Shown here: one piece after another, positions 9,251 to 18,470 of the stretch
How positions within the stretch are numbered: the first letter of the stretch is position 1
Layout: the number at the start of each line of letters is the position of its first letter
Assembly (NCBI RefSeq): GCF_003149375.1
Contig: NZ_QFWH01000006.1
Location: forward strand, 124,001-188,000
DNA length: 64,000 nt
Direction: 5' to 3'
Source of the DNA: Vampirovibrio chlorellavorus
GTDB lineage: Bacteria; Cyanobacteriota; Vampirovibrionia; Vampirovibrionales; Vampirovibrionaceae
Notes under the pieces: generated by a model
Told to the model about the DNA's origin: nothing
The model's database searches: none
Seen by the model: the letters and a program-made list of their open reading frames with translations, nothing else
Translations under genes and position numbers: made by a program

Positions 9251-9277
9251 TTCAGTTTGAACTACCGCTTCCGATAC
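9251..9277 (+). promoter_or_regulatory. Sigma-28-like promoter, pilin gene 1
   Basis: TTCAGTTT (9251-9258), 11-base spacer, TCCGATAC (9270-9277). This resembles the flagellar sigma factor consensus (TAAAGTTT, N11, GCCGATAA). The ATG of the gene lies 33 bases after the -10 element, nearly the same distance as in four sister genes. Confidence 0.6.
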
Positions 9278-9310
9278 TTTCTGCACAGAGCAAGGCAAGA
9301 GCGCTGCTGG

Positions 9311-10189
9311 ATGCTGAAGGATTGTTTCATAACCCGGTGGGTGGATAACGCCCGTATTCACAGGATGGGTTTCAGTAAACGGGCTGCCGGTTTGGGCTCC
9401 ACGGCCACCGAAATGGGGCTGATTGGCGCGGTGGTGCTGGTGGCCAGCCTTGCGTTCCTGTTTTTCCTGGGGGAGGCCTTGCAGTACGCCTTTAGTTTTG
9501 TACGGAAGGATATGGTGACTCAGGTGGCCACTGCCAATGGGTTGTCCCCCGAGGCGTTTGTGGCGCAATGGAAAGGCGGTCAGCCGGGACAAAGCGAGGG
9601 TATTCTGAATCCTGTGCAGCCCACGGCCCCCGTGGTCACTGCGGGGAGTAACGGCAACGAGGCCCACGCGGAGATTTACAAGGCCTTGCAAGAATTAATT
9701 GATCGCTCCCTGCAAAAAGGCACCATGACGGAAGCGCAGGCGGATTTGCTGAGCAAGCTGGTTAAAGAGTTAATAATTAGCTATGGACTGGAATTTGCGA
9801 ATGACAAGGCTTATGATGCTTATGGAGAAGCCTGCATGGAGGTTTATGGGGAGGATTATATGAAGAGGTGGGATGCAGAAGAGGCTTATTGGGAGGCTTA
9901 TGAGCGCTCAGATGGCTCTTTTGAGAGTGCGGAAGCGGCTTATCGAAGTGTGCTGTCTATGGGTAATGATCCTTCTGATGCTGGTTTGGACGAACTGTAT
10001 GCAACGACCGCTAGTAATTATACAGAGTACATAAAGAGCGAGATGGCTATTTATGATCATCCAGATATCATATTGACAGAGCTGCTGTGGGCCGCTGATG
10101 AAATGGGACTTCTGAACAAACCAGACGTGAATGATTTACTTAATAAAGTTTCGCTAGAGGCCTACAAAGATAATAATACAGTGGGATGA
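9311..10189 (+). CDS. Pilin-like protein 1 (prepilin G|STATE, A-type transmembrane segment)
   Basis: A 292-residue protein with a basic leader ending in AAGLG29, a prepilin-peptidase site G|STATE with Glu at +5, and one transmembrane helix. The helix and following stretch are of the FLFFLGEALQYAF type shared with pilin gene 5. A Pro/Gly-rich linker follows, then a conserved helical module (KALQELIDRSL..GTMTEAQADLL) and an acidic, Tyr/Ala-rich C-terminal domain containing SAEAAYRSVL. The class III/Flp-like signal implies assembly or anchoring at the inner membrane, though the mature chain is several times larger than a typical Flp pilin. ATG 9311 matches the start of genes 4-6 and the fixed distance to the promoter. 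Function unknown; secreted fibre subunit is an inference. Confidence 0.8.
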   Translation: MLKDCFITRWVDNARIHRMGFSKRAAGLGSTATEMGLIGAVVLVASLAFLFFLGEALQYAFSFVRKDMVTQVATANGLSPEAFVAQWKGGQPGQSEGILNPVQPTAPVVTAGSNGNEAHAEIYKALQELIDRSLQKGTMTEAQADLLSKLVKELIISYGLEFANDKAYDAYGEACMEVYGEDYMKRWDAEEAYWEAYERSDGSFESAEAAYRSVLSMGNDPSDAGLDELYATTASNYTEYIKSEMAIYDHPDIILTELLWAADEMGLLNKPDVNDLLNKVSLEAYKDNNTVG

Positions 10190-10327
10190 TACTGCCCCCG
10201 GTTGTTGATGCGTGATTCCGGTTGCGTTGGCTATTTGCCACATTGAAGCAGGCGTTCTGTCTCACTCAGTCTGAGCGCCGGTTTAAAGGTGTGGTGAAGC
10301 GGCTTATTAATTTTTTTTAACAGTCGC

Positions 10328-10355
10328 TTCAGTTTTACGGTCCCGCTTCCGATAG
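10328..10355 (+). promoter_or_regulatory. Sigma-28-like promoter, pilin gene 2
   Basis: TTCAGTTT (10328-10335), 12-base spacer, TCCGATAG (10348-10355). ATG 10390 starts 34 bases after the -10 element, which supports that start over the internal ATG at 10414. A T-rich tract lies just upstream at about 10304-10319, as it does upstream of pilin gene 6. Confidence 0.55.
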
Positions 10356-10389
10356 GGGTTTTGTTGAGTTCTCCAGTTGCGCTGGCTGA

Positions 10390-11172
10390 ATGCGGACGGA
10401 TTTTTATAAATTGATGGGTGGGTATAGTTTGACAGACCAGACAGTTTTCAGGAGACGAATTCCGGGCTCTACCACCACTGAAATGGGTCTAATTGCCTCG
10501 GTGGTGCTGGTGACCACCATTGGGTTGTGGTTTTTGCTGGGCAACGGATTGAAACAGGCAATGGGCATGGTCAAGTCGGATATGTTGGCGCAAGTCTCAA
10601 ACGCCAATGGCACGACCGCGGCGGTGTACGAGCCACCCCCGCCGCTGCCTCCACCCGTTCTGGATGATCCCCTCCCTGAGCCCGTTGAACCGACCCCAAC
10701 CGTGGTCACTGTCGGGAGTAACGGGAACGAATGGCACCCGGAGACTTATAAAGCCCTGGAGGCCTTGATTAATCGTGCCCTGCAGAAGGGAACCATGAAG
10801 GAAGCGCAAGCGGATTTACTGCGTCAGCTCATCGCTCAGATTCTACTTTTTAACGATTTGCATAATGTTTTCGTTGATTCCTATGTTGAATGTGACTATG
10901 TGGTCTGTGATTTCGATGTACTTTCCACAAAGCAAGTTGAGTTCAGAGGGGAAACCTTTATGCTCACGGATTTGATGAAACGACTGGGTAAAACCCTCAC
11001 CCCATCGGAATATCCGGAATTGGAGGGGCCATATGGCTTTTATGATTCCGATGCTTTATATGAAAAGTCTGAGGGGACGATCGCAGAAAAATTATTTAGT
11101 GAAGCAGAGACCAAGGGGGTTTTGGACGATCCAGAGATTTTTGACTTTGTTATGACCGTAAAGTCGCAATAA
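10390..11172 (+). CDS. Pilin-like protein 2 (G|STTTE, Pro-rich linker)
   Basis: 260 residues. The leader ends at Gly26, followed by STTTE and a GLWFLLG-type membrane helix. The linker is the most proline-rich of the array (PPPPLPPP, PEPVEPTPT). The conserved module KALEALINRAL..GTMKEAQADLL is present. The C-terminal domain carries VEFRGETFMLTDLMKRLG, akin to the EFEGKNYLVPELAAKAG segment of genes 3 and 4, and ends in GVLDDPEIFDF. It is the most divergent of the six close copies. Gene 3 starts 84 bases downstream without a recognisable promoter of its own, so the two may be co-transcribed. Confidence 0.8.
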   Translation: MRTDFYKLMGGYSLTDQTVFRRRIPGSTTTEMGLIASVVLVTTIGLWFLLGNGLKQAMGMVKSDMLAQVSNANGTTAAVYEPPPPLPPPVLDDPLPEPVEPTPTVVTVGSNGNEWHPETYKALEALINRALQKGTMKEAQADLLRQLIAQILLFNDLHNVFVDSYVECDYVVCDFDVLSTKQVEFRGETFMLTDLMKRLGKTLTPSEYPELEGPYGFYDSDALYEKSEGTIAEKLFSEAETKGVLDDPEIFDFVMTVKSQ

Positions 11173-11255
11173 ATGCAGGTCACGCATGACTGACAGGTTA
11201 GGCATTACTGAATGGAATACTGGCGGATTGTTTCCAAGTCACCAGCAATCAATGA

Positions 11256-11990
11256 ATGGGTGGGTACAGTGTGATACAAAAGACGGATTTCAGGAAACGA
11301 GTACCGGGCTCCACAGCCACTGAAATGGGGCTGATTGGGGCGGTGGTGCTGGTGGCTACCATTGGGTTGTGGTTTTTGCTGGGCAGCGGGCTGAAACAGG
11401 CATTGGTGATGGTCAAGTCGGACATGTTGGCGCAGGTCTCCAAGACCAACGCTACACCTTTGGGGCAGCAAGAACCGCCCAGTGTATTGCCCCCACCAGC
11501 CCTGGATGCCTCCGTCCCTGAGCCCGTTGAACCGACGCCAACCGTTATTACAGCCGGGAGTAACGGGAACGAGACCTATGCTAAGACTGATAAGGCCTTG
11601 CAGGCCTTGATTGAGCGCGCTCTGAAAAATGGTACCATGACGGAAGCGCAGGCGGACTTGCTCAAGGCCTTTGTCAAGCAACATACCCGAATGATGATCA
11701 TGGAAAAACTCATTCATGATGCAGTGATCGAGGCTCAAGAGGATTTTGAGGTAATTTCCAGAATGGAAGTTCAGTTTGAGGGGAAAAATTATCTGGTCCC
11801 TGAATTGGCGGCGAAAGCAGGTCTGGAATGGGATACGGAGTTTTCTATATTTTTTATGGTGACAGATGACTATGAACAATCGGAGGGGGGTGTTTACGAT
11901 GCTTTATGGGATCAACTCGATGAAAGTGGACTTTTGGATGATCCGGAAGTAGGCGAATTCCTGACGGAATTTTATCAATCTTTTCGGTAG
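11256..11990 (+). CDS. Pilin-like protein 3
   Basis: 244 residues with a short leader (cleavage after Gly18, then STATE), the GLWFLLGSGLKQAL membrane segment, a PxPEPVEPTPT linker and the conserved GTMTEAQADLL module. The C-terminal domain contains EVQFEGKNYLVPELAAKAGLEWDTE split over two stretches, nearly identical to gene 4, and closes with SGLLDDPEVGEFL. The leader resembles gene 2 (MGGYS) whereas the body resembles gene 4, one of several mosaic patterns in the array. No sigma-28-like box was found in front of it. Confidence 0.8.
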   Translation: MGGYSVIQKTDFRKRVPGSTATEMGLIGAVVLVATIGLWFLLGSGLKQALVMVKSDMLAQVSKTNATPLGQQEPPSVLPPPALDASVPEPVEPTPTVITAGSNGNETYAKTDKALQALIERALKNGTMTEAQADLLKAFVKQHTRMMIMEKLIHDAVIEAQEDFEVISRMEVQFEGKNYLVPELAAKAGLEWDTEFSIFFMVTDDYEQSEGGVYDALWDQLDESGLLDDPEVGEFLTEFYQSFR

Positions 11991-12330
11991 TTTCAGGTGA
12001 ATTGGCGCCACAGGGTTGCTGATTTTCTGAACGCGTTCTGACGGTCTACCGGGCTTTGCCATCTGTCTCCGGATTTTCCCGGCATTGATGGCTGAATGAG
12101 TGATAATAGGATGTTAATTTTACGTAATGGTTACTTCAGTCTGGCCTGTCCCTTCCGATAACTTTTGCATGAGGCAAGGCAAGAGCGCAGCCTGAATGCT
12201 AAAGGATTGTTTCACAACCCGGTGGGTGGGTAATGCCCGGATTCACAGGGCGGTTTTTAGGAAACGAGGTGCCGGTTTGGGCTCTACGGCCACTGAAATG
12301 GGGCTGATTGGGGCGGTGGTGCTGGTGGCC
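11988..12330 (+). repeat. Long direct repeat, copy 1 (promoter plus pilin leader)
   Basis: About 343 bases spanning the 3' end of pilin gene 3, the intergenic promoter region and the leader plus first membrane residues of gene 4. The copy at 12961-13303, offset by 973 bases, differs at about six positions counted by eye. Such repeats allow deletion, duplication or gene conversion of a whole cassette. Confidence 0.9.
12135..12161 (+). promoter_or_regulatory. Sigma-28-like promoter, pilin gene 4
   Basis: TTCAGTCT (12135-12142), 11-base spacer, TCCGATAA (12154-12161). The gene's ATG is 34 bases after the -10 element. The -10 matches seven of eight positions of GCCGATAA. Confidence 0.62.
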
Positions 12331-12963
12331 ACCATTGGGTTGTGGTTTTTGCTGGGCAACGGGTTGAAACAGGCATTGGTGATGGTCAAGTCGGACATGT
12401 TGGCGCAGGTCTCCAAGACCAACGCTACACCTGTGGGGCAGCAAGAACCGCCCAGTGTGCTGCCCCCAGCAGCCCTGGATGCTCCCGTCCCTGAGCCCGT
12501 TGAACCGACGCCAACCGTTATTACAGCCGGGAGTAACGGGAACGAGACCTATGCTAAGACTGATAAGGCCTTGCAGGCCTTGATTGAGCGCTCTTTGCAA
12601 GAAGGCACCATGACGGAAGCCCAGGCGGATTTGTTCAAGGCCTATGTCAAACAAGTAACCCGAGTGATGAATATAGAAAAACTCCTCGATGATACAGCGA
12701 CCAAGGCTCAAAAGGATTTTGAGGTAATTTCCAGAATGGAAGTTCAGTTTGAGGGGAAAAATTATCTGGTTCCTGAATTGGCGGCGAAAGCCGGTTTGGA
12801 ATGGGATACTGAGTATTCTGGTTTTTATGCTGCTACATATGACGATGAACAATCGGAGTGGGCTGTTTGCAATGCTATGTTCGAACAGCTCGAGGAAAGT
12901 GGGATCCTGGATGAGCCGAAAGTAGACGAATTCATGATGACATTTTGGAGATCTCTTTGGTAG
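12196..12963 (+). CDS. Pilin-like protein 4
   Basis: 255 residues. The 29-residue leader ends in RGAGLG, followed by STATE and the GLWFLLGNGLKQAL membrane segment. The linker, the GTMTEAQADL module and the EGKNYLVPELAAKAG domain are close to gene 3, differing mainly in the last 40 residues, which end SGILDEPKVDEFM. Upstream DNA and leader are almost identical to gene 5, although the gene 5 product has a different membrane segment and C-terminus. This places a recombination breakpoint just after the prepilin cleavage site. Confidence 0.8.
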   Translation: MLKDCFTTRWVGNARIHRAVFRKRGAGLGSTATEMGLIGAVVLVATIGLWFLLGNGLKQALVMVKSDMLAQVSKTNATPVGQQEPPSVLPPAALDAPVPEPVEPTPTVITAGSNGNETYAKTDKALQALIERSLQEGTMTEAQADLFKAYVKQVTRVMNIEKLLDDTATKAQKDFEVISRMEVQFEGKNYLVPELAAKAGLEWDTEYSGFYAATYDDEQSEWAVCNAMFEQLEESGILDEPKVDEFMMTFWRSLW

Positions 12964-13303
12964 TTTCAGGTGAATTGGCGCTACAGGGTTGCTGATTTTC
13001 TGAATGCGTTCTGACGGCCTACCGGGCTTTGCCATCTGTCTCCGGATTTTCCCGGCATTGATGGCTGAATGAGTGATAATAGGATGTTAATTTTACGTAA
13101 TGGTTACTTCAGTCTGGCCTGTTCCTTCCGATAACTTTTGCATGAGGCAAGGCAAGAGCGCAGCCTGAATGCTAAAGGATTGTTTCACAACCCGGTGGGT
13201 GGGTAATGCCTGGATTCACAGGGCGGTTTTTAGGAAACGAGGTGCCGGTTTGGGCTCTACGGCCACTGAAATGGGGCTGATTGGAGCGGTGGTGCTGGTG
13301 GCC
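12961..13303 (+). repeat. Long direct repeat, copy 2
   Basis: Second copy of the repeat at 11988-12330. Identity is lost after GGTGCTGGTGGCC within the codons for the membrane helix, where gene 5 switches to an A-type sequence. Confidence 0.9.
13108..13134 (+). promoter_or_regulatory. Sigma-28-like promoter, pilin gene 5
   Basis: TTCAGTCT (13108-13115), 11-base spacer, TCCGATAA (13127-13134), with the ATG 34 bases downstream of the -10. It lies inside the long direct repeat shared with gene 4. Confidence 0.62.
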
Positions 13304-14056
13304 AGTCTTACGTTCCTGTTTTTCCTGGGGGAGGCCTTGCAGTATGCCTTTAGTTTTGTACGGAAGGATATGGTGACTCAGGTGGCCACTGCCAATGGGC
13401 TATCCCCCGATGCGTTTGTAGCGCAATGGAAAGGCGGTCAGCCGGGACAGAGCGAGGGTATTCTAAATCCTGTACAGCCCACGGCCCCCGTGGTCACTGC
13501 GGGGAGTAACGGCAACGAGGCCCATGCGGAAATTTACAAAGCCTTGCAGGAATTAATCGATCGCTCTCTGAAAAAAGGCACCATGACGGAAGCGCAGGCG
13601 GATTTGCTGAGCAAGTATATTAAGGCAGCTCAGCATTACTTCGAATCACTAAGTGCCTGGGATAAAGCATACTCTGTTTATTTTTTTCCTTTTTATTTTG
13701 AAGGGTCTATTGAAACAGAGGGGTTTACGGCCATTTACGAAGCCGAATCTGCTTATGAGGAAGTTTACCAAAAAACAGGGTCTTATGAGGAAGCTGAAGC
13801 GGCATATCGGAACGTATTGGACGATTATTCTGCTGTTTTTGATGAATCGCCTGAATCTCTTTCTAAAAAATATACAACTCTTCAAGAAGCCCTGCAGCGT
13901 ACACATGAAACCTTGATAATTTTTAGTGGATTGGAGGCAGCGGCTGTGGAAAACGGACTTTTAGATGATCCCGAGGTGGTTTATTTTATTGATACACTCT
14001 GGTTTGAATCTTACGAGAAAATCGATCTTTGGGGTGCTGATACTACAGAGGGATGA
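13169..14056 (+). CDS. Pilin-like protein 5 (hybrid: gene 4 leader, gene 1 body)
   Basis: 295 residues. The leader and cleavage site match gene 4. From the membrane helix on (FLFFLGEALQYAF, VRKDMVTQVATANGL, AQWKGGQPGQSEG) it matches gene 1, and the C-terminal domain is also of the gene 1 type (YEEAEAAYRNVL, ENGLLDDPEV). The variable part is more A+T-rich than the conserved part. It is an evident mosaic, best explained by recombination between cassettes. Confidence 0.8.
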   Translation: MLKDCFTTRWVGNAWIHRAVFRKRGAGLGSTATEMGLIGAVVLVASLTFLFFLGEALQYAFSFVRKDMVTQVATANGLSPDAFVAQWKGGQPGQSEGILNPVQPTAPVVTAGSNGNEAHAEIYKALQELIDRSLKKGTMTEAQADLLSKYIKAAQHYFESLSAWDKAYSVYFFPFYFEGSIETEGFTAIYEAESAYEEVYQKTGSYEEAEAAYRNVLDDYSAVFDESPESLSKKYTTLQEALQRTHETLIIFSGLEAAAVENGLLDDPEVVYFIDTLWFESYEKIDLWGADTTEG

Positions 14057-14251
14057 GACTGCCCTGTGTAGTGATGCGTGATTTCGGTAGCGCTGGCTGG
14101 CTTGGTCCAGAGAATTGAAGGCTGCCGTATTTGCAAGTGAAAAAAACGGGTGGCGACAGAGTGCTACTTTTGACAGGCGTTCTGTCTCACTCAGCCTGAG
14201 CGCCGGTTTGAAGGCATTGTGAAGCGGCTTATTAATTTTTTTAACATTTGC

Positions 14252-14279
14252 TTCAGTTTTAGGGTGCCGCTTCCGATAA
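14252..14279 (+). promoter_or_regulatory. Sigma-28-like promoter, pilin gene 6, with adjacent palindrome
   Basis: TTCAGTTT (14252-14259), 12-base spacer, TCCGATAA (14272-14279), ATG 34 bases downstream. Immediately downstream at about 14283-14295 is the perfect palindrome TTGCATAATGCAA, which is degenerate in front of genes 4 and 5; it could be an operator in the initially transcribed region. Confidence 0.6.
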
Positions 14280-14313
14280 CTTTTGCATAATGCAAGGCAA
14301 GAGCGCAGCCTGA

Positions 14314-15210
14314 ATGCTAAAGGATTGTTTCACAACCCGGTGGGTGGGTAATGCCCGGATTCACAGGGTGGGTTTCAGTAAACGGGCTGCCGGTTTGGGC
14401 TCTACGGCCACTGAAATGGGGCTGATTGGGGCGGTGGTGCTGGTGGCTACCATTGGGTTGTGGTTTTTGCTGGGCAACGGGTTGAAACAGGCATTGGTGA
14501 TGGTCAAGTCGGACATGTTGGCGCAGGTCTCCATGGCCAACGCTTCACCTTTGGGGCAGCAAGAACCGCCCAGTGTGCTGCCCCCAGCAGCCCTGGATGT
14601 TCTCGTCCCTGAGCCCGTTGAACCGACGCCAACCGTGATGACTGCGGGGGGAAACGGCAACGAGGCCCATGCGGAAATTTACAAAGCCTTGCAGGAATTA
14701 ATCGATCGCTCTCTGAAAAAAGGCACCATGACGGAAGCACAGGCTGATTTGTTGCGTCAACTGGTCAAGCAGATGCTTTATTCCGCAGAATGCGCTTTTG
14801 CTGCTAAGGAGGCATTTGATGCTTATATGAAGTCTTATGGGGAACTTTATGAATTGAATTTTTACAGCGGCCCTGGTGGGGGGATTGACCAATATAAGTT
14901 AGAGCAGGTTTATGGGGAGGCTTATAAAGACTCGAATGGTTCTTATGAGAGTGCGGAAGCGGCTTACGCAAGCTTATTGTTAAACACCTACAAGCCTTAT
15001 AAACCGGATACAGGTAAACTGTACGCGGATCTGGCTAAAAAATATACCAATACCCTTAAAAGTCAGGCCGTCTCGGATAAAAACGCCAATATTAACAAAG
15101 AACTGGATGCGGCCGTCCAGGAAAGCGGCATTCTGAACGATCCTGAGGTGTCTGACTTTATCGCTCAAGTGGGGCAGCAAGCATTCGAGATTTTTATGAT
15201 GGGCCGCTGA
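14314..15210 (+). CDS. Pilin-like protein 6 (hybrid: gene 4 membrane segment, gene 1/5 module)
   Basis: 298 residues. The leader resembles gene 1 (GFSKRAAGLG), the membrane segment and linker resemble genes 3 and 4 (GLWFLLGNGLKQAL), and from the NGNEAHAEIYKALQEL module onward it resembles gene 5. An 86-base stretch at 14653-14738 is identical to 13508-13593 in gene 5. The C-terminal domain is Tyr/Ala-rich (SAEAAYASLL) and ends SGILNDPEVSDFI. It is the clearest three-way mosaic in the array. Confidence 0.8.
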   Translation: MLKDCFTTRWVGNARIHRVGFSKRAAGLGSTATEMGLIGAVVLVATIGLWFLLGNGLKQALVMVKSDMLAQVSMANASPLGQQEPPSVLPPAALDVLVPEPVEPTPTVMTAGGNGNEAHAEIYKALQELIDRSLKKGTMTEAQADLLRQLVKQMLYSAECAFAAKEAFDAYMKSYGELYELNFYSGPGGGIDQYKLEQVYGEAYKDSNGSYESAEAAYASLLLNTYKPYKPDTGKLYADLAKKYTNTLKSQAVSDKNANINKELDAAVQESGILNDPEVSDFIAQVGQQAFEIFMMGR

Positions 15211-15463
15211 TGCTGTGTGTGACCATGATGATTGAGTCTGGGGGCGCTGGCTGGGAAGGCCTGACAATTTGAGATTGCCAGAGTTTGAGCGGAATAAAAA
15301 CAGATTCAGGACAGGTTGTTAACACACTTTAGTTGCCTGCTCTCCTGTTTTGTCTGAGTCTTTTTTGCAGGCTGATTGTATAAAATTTGTAACGAAGCAC
15401 TCAAGAGAATGTTTAAAGGGGCCGATACCATTCAGAGTCGGTAAGAAACGAGTGAACGCCTTG

Positions 15464-16402
15464 ATGATAGCGCCCGATCCCAGGAAACCGCATGGCTCGG
15501 CTCAACCCGTGACCGTTCACCGGGCGACGGCCCGGCGGGGGAACACATCCATGGAGTACACGCTGGTGGGTGCTTCCGTTCTGGTGGCCACGGTTGGTCT
15601 GTGGTTCTTACTGGGTGGGTATTTAAAAGATATTTTTTTGGTTATCAAAGCCGACATGGGCGTCCGGGGAGTGGTTTCCAGCTTATCAGGCATGGTCCAA
15701 GGGCTTGACCAACTTATGGATGTGAAAAGCACGGATGGGCGAACCATTGACACCGGATTGGAATTCGGGGCGCCCACTACGCAAACGGTTGGCACCAGCG
15801 GCAACACCGCCGAGGCCTACAAGAATTTGAGAAAACTATCGGAAAAGGCCGTGGGGGAAGGTAAAATGACCCAGGAAGAAGCGGCCAATCTGGATGCTTT
15901 GGCCCAGCAGGCGCTGAAGTTGGCAGGCATCCAAAAGGCCATAGAGACCGCTATGGCTCAAGTCGGTCTTGATAATAAGGCGCTACTGGCCATGCAGGTG
16001 CAACTGGAAGGTGAAAGTTACACGGTGGCTGAGTTGGCGGAAATGATTGGCTGGAAGGAGAACACCAGCGGGGATGGAAACCCATTGGTTCCGGATGCGA
16101 ACGCCAACGGGGCCGAGTTGAATATCCTGAAAGAATTGTATCAGGAGGCTTTGGCCAGTGGGGCCCTCAAAGACGCCGGAGTGAAGGATCTGGTGAGCCA
16201 ACTGACCGGACAGGTAGCCAATTTCAGCGATGTTTCCCAAAACGCCAGTGACGGGGTTGTTATCGAGGCCCCCCAAGCGGCTCAGGAGCAATACGAAGAA
16301 GGGGTGGCTGACCAGTTGGGCGATGGTACCACCAGTACGTCCGGTCCTTCACAGCAGGCTGGTTCTGGCATTGCAGGCGCAAATTCAGGTCGCGGACAGT
16401 AA
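15464..16402 (+). CDS. Pilin-like protein 7 (divergent, canonical Flp-type G|NTSMEY site)
   Basis: About 312 residues if ATG 15464 is used; GTG 15452 and TTG 15350 are alternatives. The cleavage site RRG26|NTSMEY has the Flp hallmark Glu-Tyr, followed by a GLWFLLGGYLKD helix related to the six upstream genes. The conserved module appears as KAVGEGKMTQEEAANLDAL, and QLEGESYTVAELAEMIGW corresponds to the EGKNYLVPELAAKAG segment of genes 3 and 4. The C-terminal 60 residues are Gln/Ser/Gly-rich. No sigma-28-like box is seen upstream. The 3' end overlaps the convergent lpxB by 18 bases. Probably the older, non-amplified member of the family. Confidence 0.78.
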   Translation: MIAPDPRKPHGSAQPVTVHRATARRGNTSMEYTLVGASVLVATVGLWFLLGGYLKDIFLVIKADMGVRGVVSSLSGMVQGLDQLMDVKSTDGRTIDTGLEFGAPTTQTVGTSGNTAEAYKNLRKLSEKAVGEGKMTQEEAANLDALAQQALKLAGIQKAIETAMAQVGLDNKALLAMQVQLEGESYTVAELAEMIGWKENTSGDGNPLVPDANANGAELNILKELYQEALASGALKDAGVKDLVSQLTGQVANFSDVSQNASDGVVIEAPQAAQEQYEEGVADQLGDGTTSTSGPSQQAGSGIAGANSGRGQ

Positions 16403-17599
16403 GGGGTTCTCCTTTGCCTGCGGATGGGGCTGCTGTTGCAGCAATTTCAGAATGCCTTGGGCCACGTTCCGGGGCGTACCGCCGGTACTCAGGGATTGGC
16501 GGATGTGGGCAAAGCCTGCCAGTTGCCGCTGCACTTGCTCCGACTGCGGATCAAACAAGGGTAAGGCGGCCTGACTGATGCGGTCTGGATTGGCCTGATC
16601 CTGCCAAAGCTCCGGCACCATGGGGCGTTCCATATCGGTGAGGATATTGGGCAATCCCATACAGGGCAACTGCATTAACCGGATGGCGATTTGATAAATC
16701 AGGGGGTGCAGCTTGTACATCAAAATCATGGGGGTGTTGTATAAAGCCCCTTCCAGGGTGACCGTGCCGGAGGCGGCAATCATCAGGTCGGCTACCCCCA
16801 GCAGGGCGTGATTCTGGTTTTTCAGCAGGGTGACCGGGGGAAGGCCCTGGCCGCCCGCTTTGCGCCAGGCGGCTTCCAGGCGGGGGATAAAAAAGTCGTC
16901 ACTCAGGGAACCCGCCTGAGCCATTACAAATTGCGCCTTGGGCTGTTCCCGCCGCAGACGAGGCAGACTGCCGATGATGGCGGGCAGCAGGTAGTCGATT
17001 TCCAGTTTGCGAGAGCCGGGCATGAGGGCCACAATGGGGTCTTCCGGCCTCAGTCCCTGAGTCTGGCAAAAAGCGGTTCTGTCCGGCGGAGGGGGCAGTT
17101 CGCCTATTAACGGGTGACCCACATAGGTGACCGGAATGTCGTGCGACTCGTACAGGTCTTTCTCAAAGGGAAAAATGCAGAACACGTGGTCGACAGACGC
17201 CTTGATTTTTTTGATGCGTCCCGGGCGGGTGGCCCACACTTGCGGGGGGATGAAGTAAAACACCCGGTATCCCCGTTTTTTGAGCCTGGCGGCCATGTAC
17301 AGGTTGAAGCCCCCGTAATCAATCAGCAGAACGGCGTCCGGTTGAAAGTCCTGCAAGCGCCCAAGAATTTTTTGCCCCAGCCAGAAATGATAGGGCGCCC
17401 CCAGCACCGCTCCAAACCCCACCCGGCCCATTTTGGATTGATCGCTGAGAAGGGGAACGCCCAGCGCTTTCAGGTGCGGCCCTCCTACGGCTTCGATGAC
17501 CACATCCGGCTGTTCGGCCTGCAAGGCCTGGACCACCTTGGCGGCGTGAATATCGCCGGAATAGTCCCCGGCAATCAGGAAGAGGCGATTACCTGTCAT
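16385..17599 (-). CDS. lpxB: Lipid-A-disaccharide synthase
   Basis: A 404-residue GT19 enzyme that joins UDP-diacylglucosamine and lipid X into the lipid A disaccharide at the inner membrane. Family marks are the N-terminal LIAGDYSGDIHAAKVV, the AVGGPHLKALG segment, IDYGGFNLYMAARLKKRG near residue 95, the LMPGSRKLEI motif near 190 and the ASGTVTLEGAL donor-binding motif near 280. It overlaps the upstream lpxI by 11 bases, giving an lpxI-lpxB operon, and is direct evidence for a lipopolysaccharide outer membrane. Confidence 0.93.
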   Translation of the reverse strand: MTGNRLFLIAGDYSGDIHAAKVVQALQAEQPDVVIEAVGGPHLKALGVPLLSDQSKMGRVGFGAVLGAPYHFWLGQKILGRLQDFQPDAVLLIDYGGFNLYMAARLKKRGYRVFYFIPPQVWATRPGRIKKIKASVDHVFCIFPFEKDLYESHDIPVTYVGHPLIGELPPPPDRTAFCQTQGLRPEDPIVALMPGSRKLEIDYLLPAIIGSLPRLRREQPKAQFVMAQAGSLSDDFFIPRLEAAWRKAGGQGLPPVTLLKNQNHALLGVADLMIAASGTVTLEGALYNTPMILMYKLHPLIYQIAIRLMQLPCMGLPNILTDMERPMVPELWQDQANPDRISQAALPLFDPQSEQVQRQLAGFAHIRQSLSTGGTPRNVAQGILKLLQQQPHPQAKENPLLSAT

Positions 17600-18470
17600 G
17601 GCGTGGATCTTGCGTGGAAAGGATGATCATGTTGTGGCGATTGGCGTAGGTTTCCATCTCCTCAGGCTCCAGATAGAGGGTCTGGTTGGCTTCGGTGACC
17701 AGCATGTGCAGGCCCGCCTTGCGCATGGTCTTCAGGGTGCGCAGCCCCACGGTGGGTATGTCAAAGCGTTGATCCTGATCGGGCTTGGCCACTTTAATGA
17801 CCACCCCGCCTTTTTTGCCGGAGAGCTTACCGGCCCGTTTCAGGCACTCGTCAGTCCCTTCAATGGCCTCCACGGCCAGAATCATGCCCGAGTGGACCAC
17901 GATGCTTTGCCCGATGTCCAGACGCCCCATTTCCTTGGCCATTTCAAAGCCGTAACGGGCGTCTCTCAAATCGGCTTCGGTGGGTTGCCGTTCGGTCAGG
18001 ATTTTTTCCGGCAGGAACAGTTCCCTTAAAAAATCGGCCTGGGGTAGAACCTGTATGCCGCGCTGTTCCAACTGTTCGATAATCCACAGCATCACGGCGT
18101 CATCGTTCAGCCGGGCGTACTGGCGGATGGCTTCCACTGCAATGTCATCAATCCGGGGATCCTTGAGCAGCACCCACTTGTCCACTTTTCCGGCAAATAC
18201 CAGGTGGGTAATGCGTTCCTGGGTAATTAAATCGAGGGTTCGCCTGACCAGACCGGGCACAATGCGGTGCCCCTTGTGCTTGCAGAGATCCCGGAGTTTG
18301 GGATTGTCCTTGCCCACAATAAAGGGAACCACCTCGATGCCCTGAATGCGGGCATTTTTAGCGACGTAACGAGGCAGCAGGCCCTCACCGGCAATCAGGC
18401 CGATGCGGGTGACGTTGCCGAATTCAACTGATTTTCGGGTTTCCATAATGTTGCGAGACGCGCCGATCAT
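17589..18470 (-). CDS. lpxI: UDP-2,3-diacylglucosamine pyrophosphatase LpxI
   Basis: A 293-residue LpxI (DUF1009) protein that hydrolyses UDP-2,3-diacylglucosamine to lipid X, the substrate of LpxB. Recognisable segments are IGLIAGEGLLPRYVAKNA near residue 22, the THLVFAGKVDKW segment near 95 and the C-terminal GKKGGVVIKVAKPDQDQRFDIPTVG. LpxI replaces LpxH in many non-gammaproteobacterial lineages. Start ATG 18470; ATG 18446 is an alternative. A promoter with a perfect TATAAT lies about 80 bases upstream. Confidence 0.92.
   Translation of the reverse strand: MIGASRNIMETRKSVEFGNVTRIGLIAGEGLLPRYVAKNARIQGIEVVPFIVGKDNPKLRDLCKHKGHRIVPGLVRRTLDLITQERITHLVFAGKVDKWVLLKDPRIDDIAVEAIRQYARLNDDAVMLWIIEQLEQRGIQVLPQADFLRELFLPEKILTERQPTEADLRDARYGFEMAKEMGRLDIGQSIVVHSGMILAVEAIEGTDECLKRAGKLSGKKGGVVIKVAKPDQDQRFDIPTVGLRTLKTMRKAGLHMLVTEANQTLYLEPEEMETYANRHNMIILSTQDPRHDR

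What the first reader, a model, noticed from the sequence alone, without database searches (positions are those of the whole stretch)
9251..16402. Tandem array of seven large pilin-like genes with cassette shuffling
Six neighbouring genes and a seventh divergent one all encode a basic leader, a prepilin-peptidase site G|xxxxE, one membrane helix, a Pro/Gly linker, a conserved GTMTEAQADLL-type module and a variable C-terminal domain of 80-150 residues. Two types of membrane segment and two types of C-terminal domain are combined differently. Gene 5 has the gene 4 leader on a gene 1 body. Gene 6 has a gene 1-like leader, a gene 4 membrane segment and a gene 5 module. Flp pilins are usually 50-80 residues, so 220-290-residue versions in a tandem family are unusual. 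In a host-attacking or surface-attached bacterium such an array could diversify adhesins in the way pilin antigenic variation does.
Basis: partly seen in the sequence, partly recalled or inferred. Interest (0 to 1): 0.88.

Follow-up and report, generated by a model that had tools for sequence, protein, structure and literature searches.

The report
Mosaic array of giant Flp-like pilins
A bacterium of the genus Vampirovibrio, whose best-known species kills green algae, carries a row of seven unusually large pilus-subunit genes whose front and back halves have been repeatedly swapped between copies and between species, and most are controlled by flagellum-type promoters, which suggests an evolving set of surface fibres for contact with prey.

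Summary
Seven tandem genes (9311-16402) encode 244-312-residue proteins: basic leader, G|xxxxE prepilin site, an Flp (type IVb, Tad) pilin helix, linker, and a C-terminal domain found only in this lineage. The genome is a Vampirovibrio species. The mosaic structure is confirmed at DNA level: MaxChi tests reach the permutation floor, and trees of the N- and C-terminal parts reject each other (AU test). In a related species the gene-4 C-terminal cassette sits on a gene-2-type body; the V. chlorellavorus type strain has one gene where this genome has six. Swapping at the linker also occurs at an unrelated locus in another genus. A complete Tad machine is encoded elsewhere. Best explanation: Tad-assembled, motile-phase pilins for prey contact, diversified by recombination between copies and lineages. 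Programmed antigenic variation is not supported: no silent cassettes, every copy intact, no population data. Closest precedents: the FliA-controlled Flp pilins of Bdellovibrio and the interchangeable Tad tips of Myxococcus. New variant of a known kind.

The parts
9251..9276 (+). sigma-28 (FliA) type promoter of gene 1, TTCAGTTT-N11-TCCGATA
   Evidence: 34 nt before ATG; PWM trained on non-array sites scores 20.65, no equal among 88 kb of background strand-bases
9311..10189 (+). gene 1, 292 aa, large Flp-like pilin; long C-terminal type
10328..10354 (+). sigma-28 type promoter of gene 2
10390..11172 (+). gene 2, 260 aa, large Flp-like pilin
11256..11990 (+). gene 3, 244 aa, large Flp-like pilin; only 83 nt behind gene 2 and no promoter of its own found, so probably co-transcribed with gene 2
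12135..12160 (+). sigma-28 type promoter of gene 4 (one mismatch in the -35 block)
12196..12963 (+). gene 4, 255 aa, large Flp-like pilin
   Evidence: AF2 model
12532..12963 (+). C-terminal cassette of gene 4; 97-100% identical in nucleotide blocks to gene b of G002, where it sits on a gene-2-type N-terminus (left edge approximate)
   Evidence: breakpoint at aa column 113-133; 1 of 41 fourfold sites differ, against 14 of 34 in linker and module
13108..13133 (+). sigma-28 type promoter of gene 5 (one mismatch in the -35 block)
13169..14056 (+). gene 5, 295 aa; gene-4 leader and upstream region on a gene-1 body; breakpoint near aa 46 (about 13304)
   Evidence: MaxChi 54.3, P=0.0002
14252..14278 (+). 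sigma-28 type promoter of gene 6
14314..15210 (+). gene 6, 298 aa; gene-4 membrane segment and linker, gene-5 module, own C-terminus; breakpoint near aa 108 (about 14635)
   Evidence: MaxChi 102.5, P=0.0002
15401..15427 (+). possible sigma-28 type promoter of gene 7 (good -10, weak -35), in a matching position in V. chlorellavorus
   Evidence: score 9.45 here and 10.88 in G004, 36-37 nt before ATG
15464..16402 (+). gene 7, 312 aa, divergent member closest to the dispersed family; orthologs at the same place in G002 and G004

Best explanation
The array encodes large pilins derived from Flp (type IVb) pilins. SHOWN by sequence: an N-terminal leader and helix homologous to Tad pilins; a linker; a C-terminal domain found only in this lineage; sigma-28 type promoters upstream of five genes (a sixth weak); a complete Tad assembly locus elsewhere in the genome; and repeated exchange of N- and C-terminal parts between copies and between species. 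INFERRED: the leader is removed by the single prepilin peptidase found, the helix packs into a Tad pilus, and the C-terminal domain is exposed outside as a contact or adhesion surface. FliA would switch the genes on together with flagellins in the swimming, prey-seeking phase. Homologous recombination (gene conversion and unequal crossing-over) at the conserved promoter-leader-helix block and at the linker and module then gives new pairings of pilus-packing part and exposed part, so the repertoire of exposed domains turns over quickly between lineages.
For: Flp homology: a profile of the family finds the PDB sequences of PilA (8u1k, E 1.9e-4) and an Flp family type IVb pilin (8u2b, E 0.003) over the helix only. 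In other families of the phylum the same kind of profile finds almost only the ~50-residue helix, mostly in short (about 60-170 aa) Flp-like ORFs, best E 2e-9. Tad locus at G000:C2:228-238 kb: two T2SSF proteins, TadA-type ATPase, TadZ-like ATPase, secretin, RcpC, TadE; one prepilin peptidase. Promoters: CTTCAG-N8..14-CTTCCGATA occurs five times in the whole genome, all upstream of array genes. TTCAGTTT-N11/12-NCCGATA occurs four times, at three array genes and one flagellin. TNNAGTTT-N11/12-NCCGATA occurs 21 times against 0 for the reversed pattern; the genes behind include three flagellins, fliS and three type IV pilins with an N-methylation motif. FliA is present. The promoter is kept in G002 and G004. 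Exchange. Precedent: in Bdellovibrio the Tad operon with flp1 and flp2 is driven by FliA and is needed for predation (PMC5430801); in Myxococcus four interchangeable Tad minor-pilin tips with variable domains decide which prey is killed (PMC12075869).
Against: No expression, processing or surface data. The array is not linked to the tad locus, and no sigma-28 site was found before the three tad genes scanned, unlike in Bdellovibrio. Pfam Flp_Fap matches are far below the gathering score (14.1 against 32.2 bits), although the genome's short Flp-like genes also miss it. A 150-200-residue domain on every subunit may not fit a thin Tad filament, so these may be minor or tip subunits. In Bdellovibrio, flp mutants still bound prey (PMC5430801). 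The C-terminal domain has no clear structural match. That this particular species is a predator is inferred from its genus.
Confidence: 0.66

Rival explanations
1. Programmed antigenic or phase variation: within one population the array is actively rewritten, as with Neisseria pilE and pilS, to change the exposed pilin during contact with the host.
For: Strong mosaicism, nearly identical shared blocks (up to 100%), a C-terminal cassette that is much less diverged between species than the flanking genes.
Against: No silent or partial cassettes in the genome; all copies intact, most with their own promoter; no single expression site; prey algae have no adaptive immunity (general knowledge). No population data.
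Confidence: 0.12
2. Ordinary gene-family turnover: tandem duplication, loss and passive gene conversion homogenise the conserved N-terminal block, while the C-terminal domains diverge under weak constraint; no selection for diversity or prey specificity.
For: Gene conversion is common in tandem arrays (general knowledge); the number of array genes differs between relatives (1, 4, 6).
Against: Conversion within one array alone does not explain a C-terminal cassette moving onto a different N-terminus between species while being less diverged than the flanks, nor swapping at the linker in an unrelated locus of another genus, between two contigs (G007). Most promoters and all prepilin sites are kept.
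Confidence: 0.3
3. The proteins are not Tad pilus subunits but membrane-anchored, or pseudopilin-like, components used by the type IVa pilus or another secretion machine of the cell.
For: The genome also has further T2SSE-family ATPases of the size of PilB and PilT, and the only A24 peptidase found lies in a 346-codon open frame, long and PilD-like by eye; sigma-28 type promoters also precede type IV pilins.
Against: The helix belongs to the Flp class, not the GFTLxE class, and a full Tad locus exists.
Confidence: 0.15

Closest known systems
FliA-controlled type IVb (Flp) pilins of Bdellovibrio bacteriovorus (flp1, flp2; PMC5430801)
   Same: Flp pilins co-regulated with flagellins by FliA in a predator; several flp genes per genome
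   Different: Bdellovibrio has four flp genes, two of them in the tad operon, which itself is FliA-driven; the passages read report no tandem mosaic array and no large C-terminal domain. Here pilins are 244-312 aa, in an array away from the tad locus
Interchangeable minor-pilin tips (KilL/M/N) of the Kil Tad pilus of Myxococcus xanthus (PMC12075869)
   Same: Several alternative large pilins with variable exposed domains on a Tad pilus in a predator
   Different: Kil tips are heterotrimers with beta-stranded globular domains; here the parent is an Flp helix, the C-terminal domain is mainly helical in the model, and parts are swapped between tandem copies
Flp/PilA major pilins of Tad pili (PDB 8u1k, 8u2b)
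   Same: Homologous helix and G|xxxxE site
   Different: 45-residue chains in the PDB entries against 244-312-residue precursors; extra linker and lineage-specific C-terminal domain
Pilin antigenic variation (Neisseria pilE/pilS)
   Same: Recombination shuffles parts of a pilin family
   Different: No silent cassettes and no single expression locus; type IVb not IVa; change seen only between paralogs and species

Membership tests
Flp (type IVb, Tad) pilins | Basic leader and G|xxxxE prepilin cleavage motif before a hydrophobic helix | tested here: met
   G and E invariant in all seven and in the 19-sequence alignment A4
Flp (type IVb, Tad) pilins | Helix homologous to known Flp pilins | tested here: met
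   PDB PilA and Flp chains E 1.9e-4 and 0.003; short Flp-like ORFs of other families down to E 2e-9
Flp (type IVb, Tad) pilins | Score above the Pfam Flp_Fap gathering cut-off | tested here: inconclusive
   Best 14.1 bits against 32.2; the short Flp-like genes of this genome also miss it, best 31.7
Flp (type IVb, Tad) pilins | Low molecular weight (about 50-80 residues) | tested here: not met
   244-312 residues. Hence filed as Flp-derived large pilins, not as ordinary Flp pilins
Flp (type IVb, Tad) pilins | Tad assembly genes in the same genome | tested here: met
   (C2:228-238 kb), prepilin peptidase
Flp (type IVb, Tad) pilins | Cleavage by prepilin peptidase and presence in a filament | not testable with these tools
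   needs protein work
TadE/F/G or Kil tip minor pilins | TadE-type N-terminal domain with beta-stranded globular part | tested here: not met
   No TadE match in any of the seven; models mainly helical with short hairpins
Sigma-28 (FliA) regulon | TAAAGTTT-N11-GCCGATAA-like promoter close to the start, FliA present | tested here: met
   five of seven genes, a sixth weak
Sigma-28 (FliA) regulon | Transcription depends on FliA | not testable with these tools
   needs reporter or RNA data
Pilin antigenic variation (pilE/pilS type) | Silent partial donor copies | tested here: not met
   Whole-genome searches find intact ORFs, no partial array-type copies
Pilin antigenic variation (pilE/pilS type) | Variation within a clone | not testable with these tools
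   one genome per species held

The most novel reading that the evidence does not exclude
An algal predator keeps a recombining repertoire of exposed pilin domains, switched on with the flagellum, that decides which prey cell it recognises; domain swapping at the linker is an evolved, ongoing way of changing prey range, reached independently of Bdellovibrio and Myxococcus.
Probability: 0.25. Interest if true: 0.88.

Novelty: new variant of a known kind. Interest (0 to 1): 0.68.

Why it matters
How Vampirovibrio attaches to and selects algal cells is unknown; Soo et al. 2015 proposed type IV pili and a type IV secretion system and do not mention Flp or Tad (terms absent from the text). The array and the sigma-28 promoters give a defined, testable set of candidates. 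They also suggest that FliA-linked Flp pilins were recruited in predators of unrelated phyla (Cyanobacteriota here, Bdellovibrionota), and that Tad pili can be diversified by swapping domains of Flp pilins, not only by exchanging tip complexes. The Flp-like repertoire in this family (11 to 33 matches in six of ten genomes, including short Flp genes) exceeds the four genes that were called the largest type IVb complement in 2017 (PMC5430801).

Tried and rejected
Pfam and NCBIfam scans of the seven proteins gave only sub-threshold or chance matches. Fold comparison: Foldseek against the PDB with the gene 7 model gave nothing at E 0.001 or better; VIA-align with the gene 4 model gave at best Z 7.2, to a designed helical protein, within the range expected for helical models without true relatives, so the fold is left unassigned. 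Parts of the models outside about residues 110-255 are of low confidence. A sigma-70 scan of the array found fewer sites than shuffles. A first alignment was too diverse for the genome-collection scan; a narrower one worked. Considered and rejected: assembly artefact, since the array lies inside a 215-kb contig and an array with different pairings is found in an independent assembly (G002), though that one is fragmented and the identity of its first array gene is uncertain. Rate variation along the gene as the cause of the MaxChi signal was rejected because the nearest partner changes at 97-100% identity.
Full report
1. What is there. Seven ORFs on the + strand between 9311 and 16402 encode proteins of 292, 260, 244, 255, 295, 298 and 312 residues. 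All have a basic leader, glycine followed by a glutamate at the fifth place after it, a hydrophobic helix, a linker (Pro-rich in genes 2, 3, 4 and 6) and a C-terminal domain. Gene 1 starts at 9311 and gene 7 most likely at 15464. These starts stand 34-36 nt behind promoter-like sites, as in the other genes except gene 3, which has no site of its own.

2. Organism and wider family. The window is contig C6 of a 2.79-Mb genome. A scan of 84,980 species genomes with a family alignment returned relatives only from Vampirovibrio and Vampirovibrionales, among them V. chlorellavorus NCIMB 11383. The scan uses one conserved peptide pattern, so distant relatives could be missed. The array genes belong to a larger family whose typical member has the same Flp-like helix, a linker and a ~200-residue domain with the signature GANGTT...LANQGHR.A...F.G..Y...SGAL.DP and a final pair of cysteines. 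The array genes lack the final cysteine pair. Full-length members were found only in the own family f1; in the rest of 386 genomes of the phylum the profile matches almost only the helix, mostly in short Flp-like ORFs. Counts of Flp-like matches per genome, short Flp genes included: 14 here, 33 in G003, 11 in V. chlorellavorus, 14 in G002, 16 in G006, 11 in G007. So the seven genes are Flp pilins with an added domain. The PDB sequence comparison agrees: PilA (8u1k) and an Flp type IVb pilin (8u2b) over the helix.

3. Mosaic structure. In 60-nt blocks the closest partner of a gene changes along its length. Gene 4 is closest to gene 5 in the upstream region and leader (98%), to genes 6 and 3 through helix and linker (97-100%), and to gene b of the relative G002 in the C-terminal domain (97-100%). 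Gene b of G002 has a gene-2-type linker; gene c of G002 has the gene-3 C-terminal domain behind a MLKDCF leader of the other type. Ten MaxChi triplets all reached the floor of 5,000 permutations (P=0.0002), with breakpoints at the leader-helix border, the linker-module border and the start of the C-terminal domain. N-terminal and C-terminal trees reject each other in AU tests (log-likelihood differences 365 and 212). At fourfold-degenerate sites the C-terminal cassettes of gene 4 and G002 gene b differ at 1 of 41 sites, against 14 of 34 in the linker and module of the same pair and 0.23-0.25 in the flanking genes. This suggests exchange between the lineages after they separated; one inherited pairing does not explain it.

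4. The same happens elsewhere. In G007 (another genus) the third gene of a tandem trio has the N-terminal part of its neighbour (87-89%, against 37-38% for the other) and the C-terminal part of a gene on a different contig (83-93%, against 35-57%), with a breakpoint in the linker (MaxChi 307, P=0.0002). Trios in V. chlorellavorus and in G002 show the same tendency.

5. Locus history. Flanks are conserved: cysteine genes, glycosyltransferase, pentapeptide protein on one side, lpxB on the other (names of flanking genes by eye). Between them V. chlorellavorus has one array gene and gene 7; G002 has four array genes and gene 7 (the first split between two contigs); this genome has six and gene 7. 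The array has therefore expanded or contracted within the genus.

6. Promoters. An element CTTCAG-N-CTTCCGATA stands before genes 1, 2, 4, 5 and 6 and nowhere else in the genome. It fits the sigma-28 (FliA) consensus TAAAGTTT-N11-GCCGATAA (established knowledge). Flagellin genes of this genome have the same type of site at spacing 11-12. The exact form TTCAGTTT-N11/12-NCCGATA gives four genome hits: three array genes and one flagellin. A looser form gives 21 sites against none for the reversed pattern. The genes behind those sites include flagellins, fliS and type IV pilins with an N-methylation motif. A matrix trained only on non-array sites scores the five array sites 15-21 bits; only two positions in 88 kb of background strand-bases reach 15.07. 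Sites of this type stand before all four array genes of G002 and the single array gene of V. chlorellavorus. A weaker site precedes gene 7 here and in V. chlorellavorus. Two dispersed family members (C5:188, C9:76551) also have strong sites, though the start of the second is uncertain. FliA itself is encoded. No site was found before the tad genes scanned.

7. Machinery. A complete Tad set lies at C2:228-238 kb, one A24 prepilin peptidase at C2:217 kb, and short Flp-like genes at C4:214 kb and C6:82 kb.

8. Structure. AF2 models: gene 7 mean pLDDT 63 (about 80-94 over residues 120-250); gene 4 mean 73 (about 90 over most of 120-255). The C-terminal domain is mostly helical with short hairpins. 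No solved structure matches clearly.

9. Mechanism. Shown: Flp descent, machinery present, sigma-28 type promoters, and domain exchange between copies and lineages. Inferred: Tad assembly, surface exposure, expression with the flagellum in the prey-seeking phase, role in prey contact. Two published predators make this plausible: Bdellovibrio, where FliA drives the tad operon with flp1 and flp2, which are required for predation although not for binding (PMC5430801); and Myxococcus, where interchangeable Tad tips decide prey (PMC12075869). V. chlorellavorus swims to its prey, attaches by a pad of unknown composition and has visible pili bundles near the flagellum (PMC4451040). Programmed antigenic variation is not supported.

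10. Novelty. Literature searches found no report of large Flp pilins with C-terminal domains or of gene conversion in type IVb pilins, and none on Tad pili in Vampirovibrio among the papers listed; only open-licence full text was searched. Filed as a new variant of a known kind.

Noticed in passing
G000:C3:345115-355318 (loci L124, L125, L127-L131): Seven flagellin genes in a row on one contig (ten in the genome); several have sigma-28 sites about 220-235 nt upstream of the matched domain. A second tandem surface-filament array.
   Followed up: partly
L143:1501-3025 (G000:C2:150561): A protein with TPR repeats and a matrixin-type metalloprotease domain directly behind a sigma-28 type site: a candidate motile-phase protease.
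   Followed up: partly
L065:5696-8304 (G000:C6:81.7-84.3 kb): Three short Flp-like pilin genes (126-182 aa) next to a gene for a matrixin-type protease (PF00413).
   Followed up: no
L075:8324-9922 (G006:C87): A 532-aa relative with two copies of the C-terminal domain in one protein and a degenerate prepilin site.
   Followed up: no
L141, L142, L157 (G000:C2:47980, C2:100746, C11:819): Three type IVa-like pilins (GFTLAELL) with sigma-28 type promoters 40-50 nt before the start, so both pilin classes may follow the flagellar sigma factor.
   Followed up: partly
window 16385-18470, - strand: Two genes judged by eye to be lpxB and lpxI (lipid A) directly behind the array, convergent with gene 7; the end of the first overlaps the end of gene 7 by 18 nt.
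   Followed up: no
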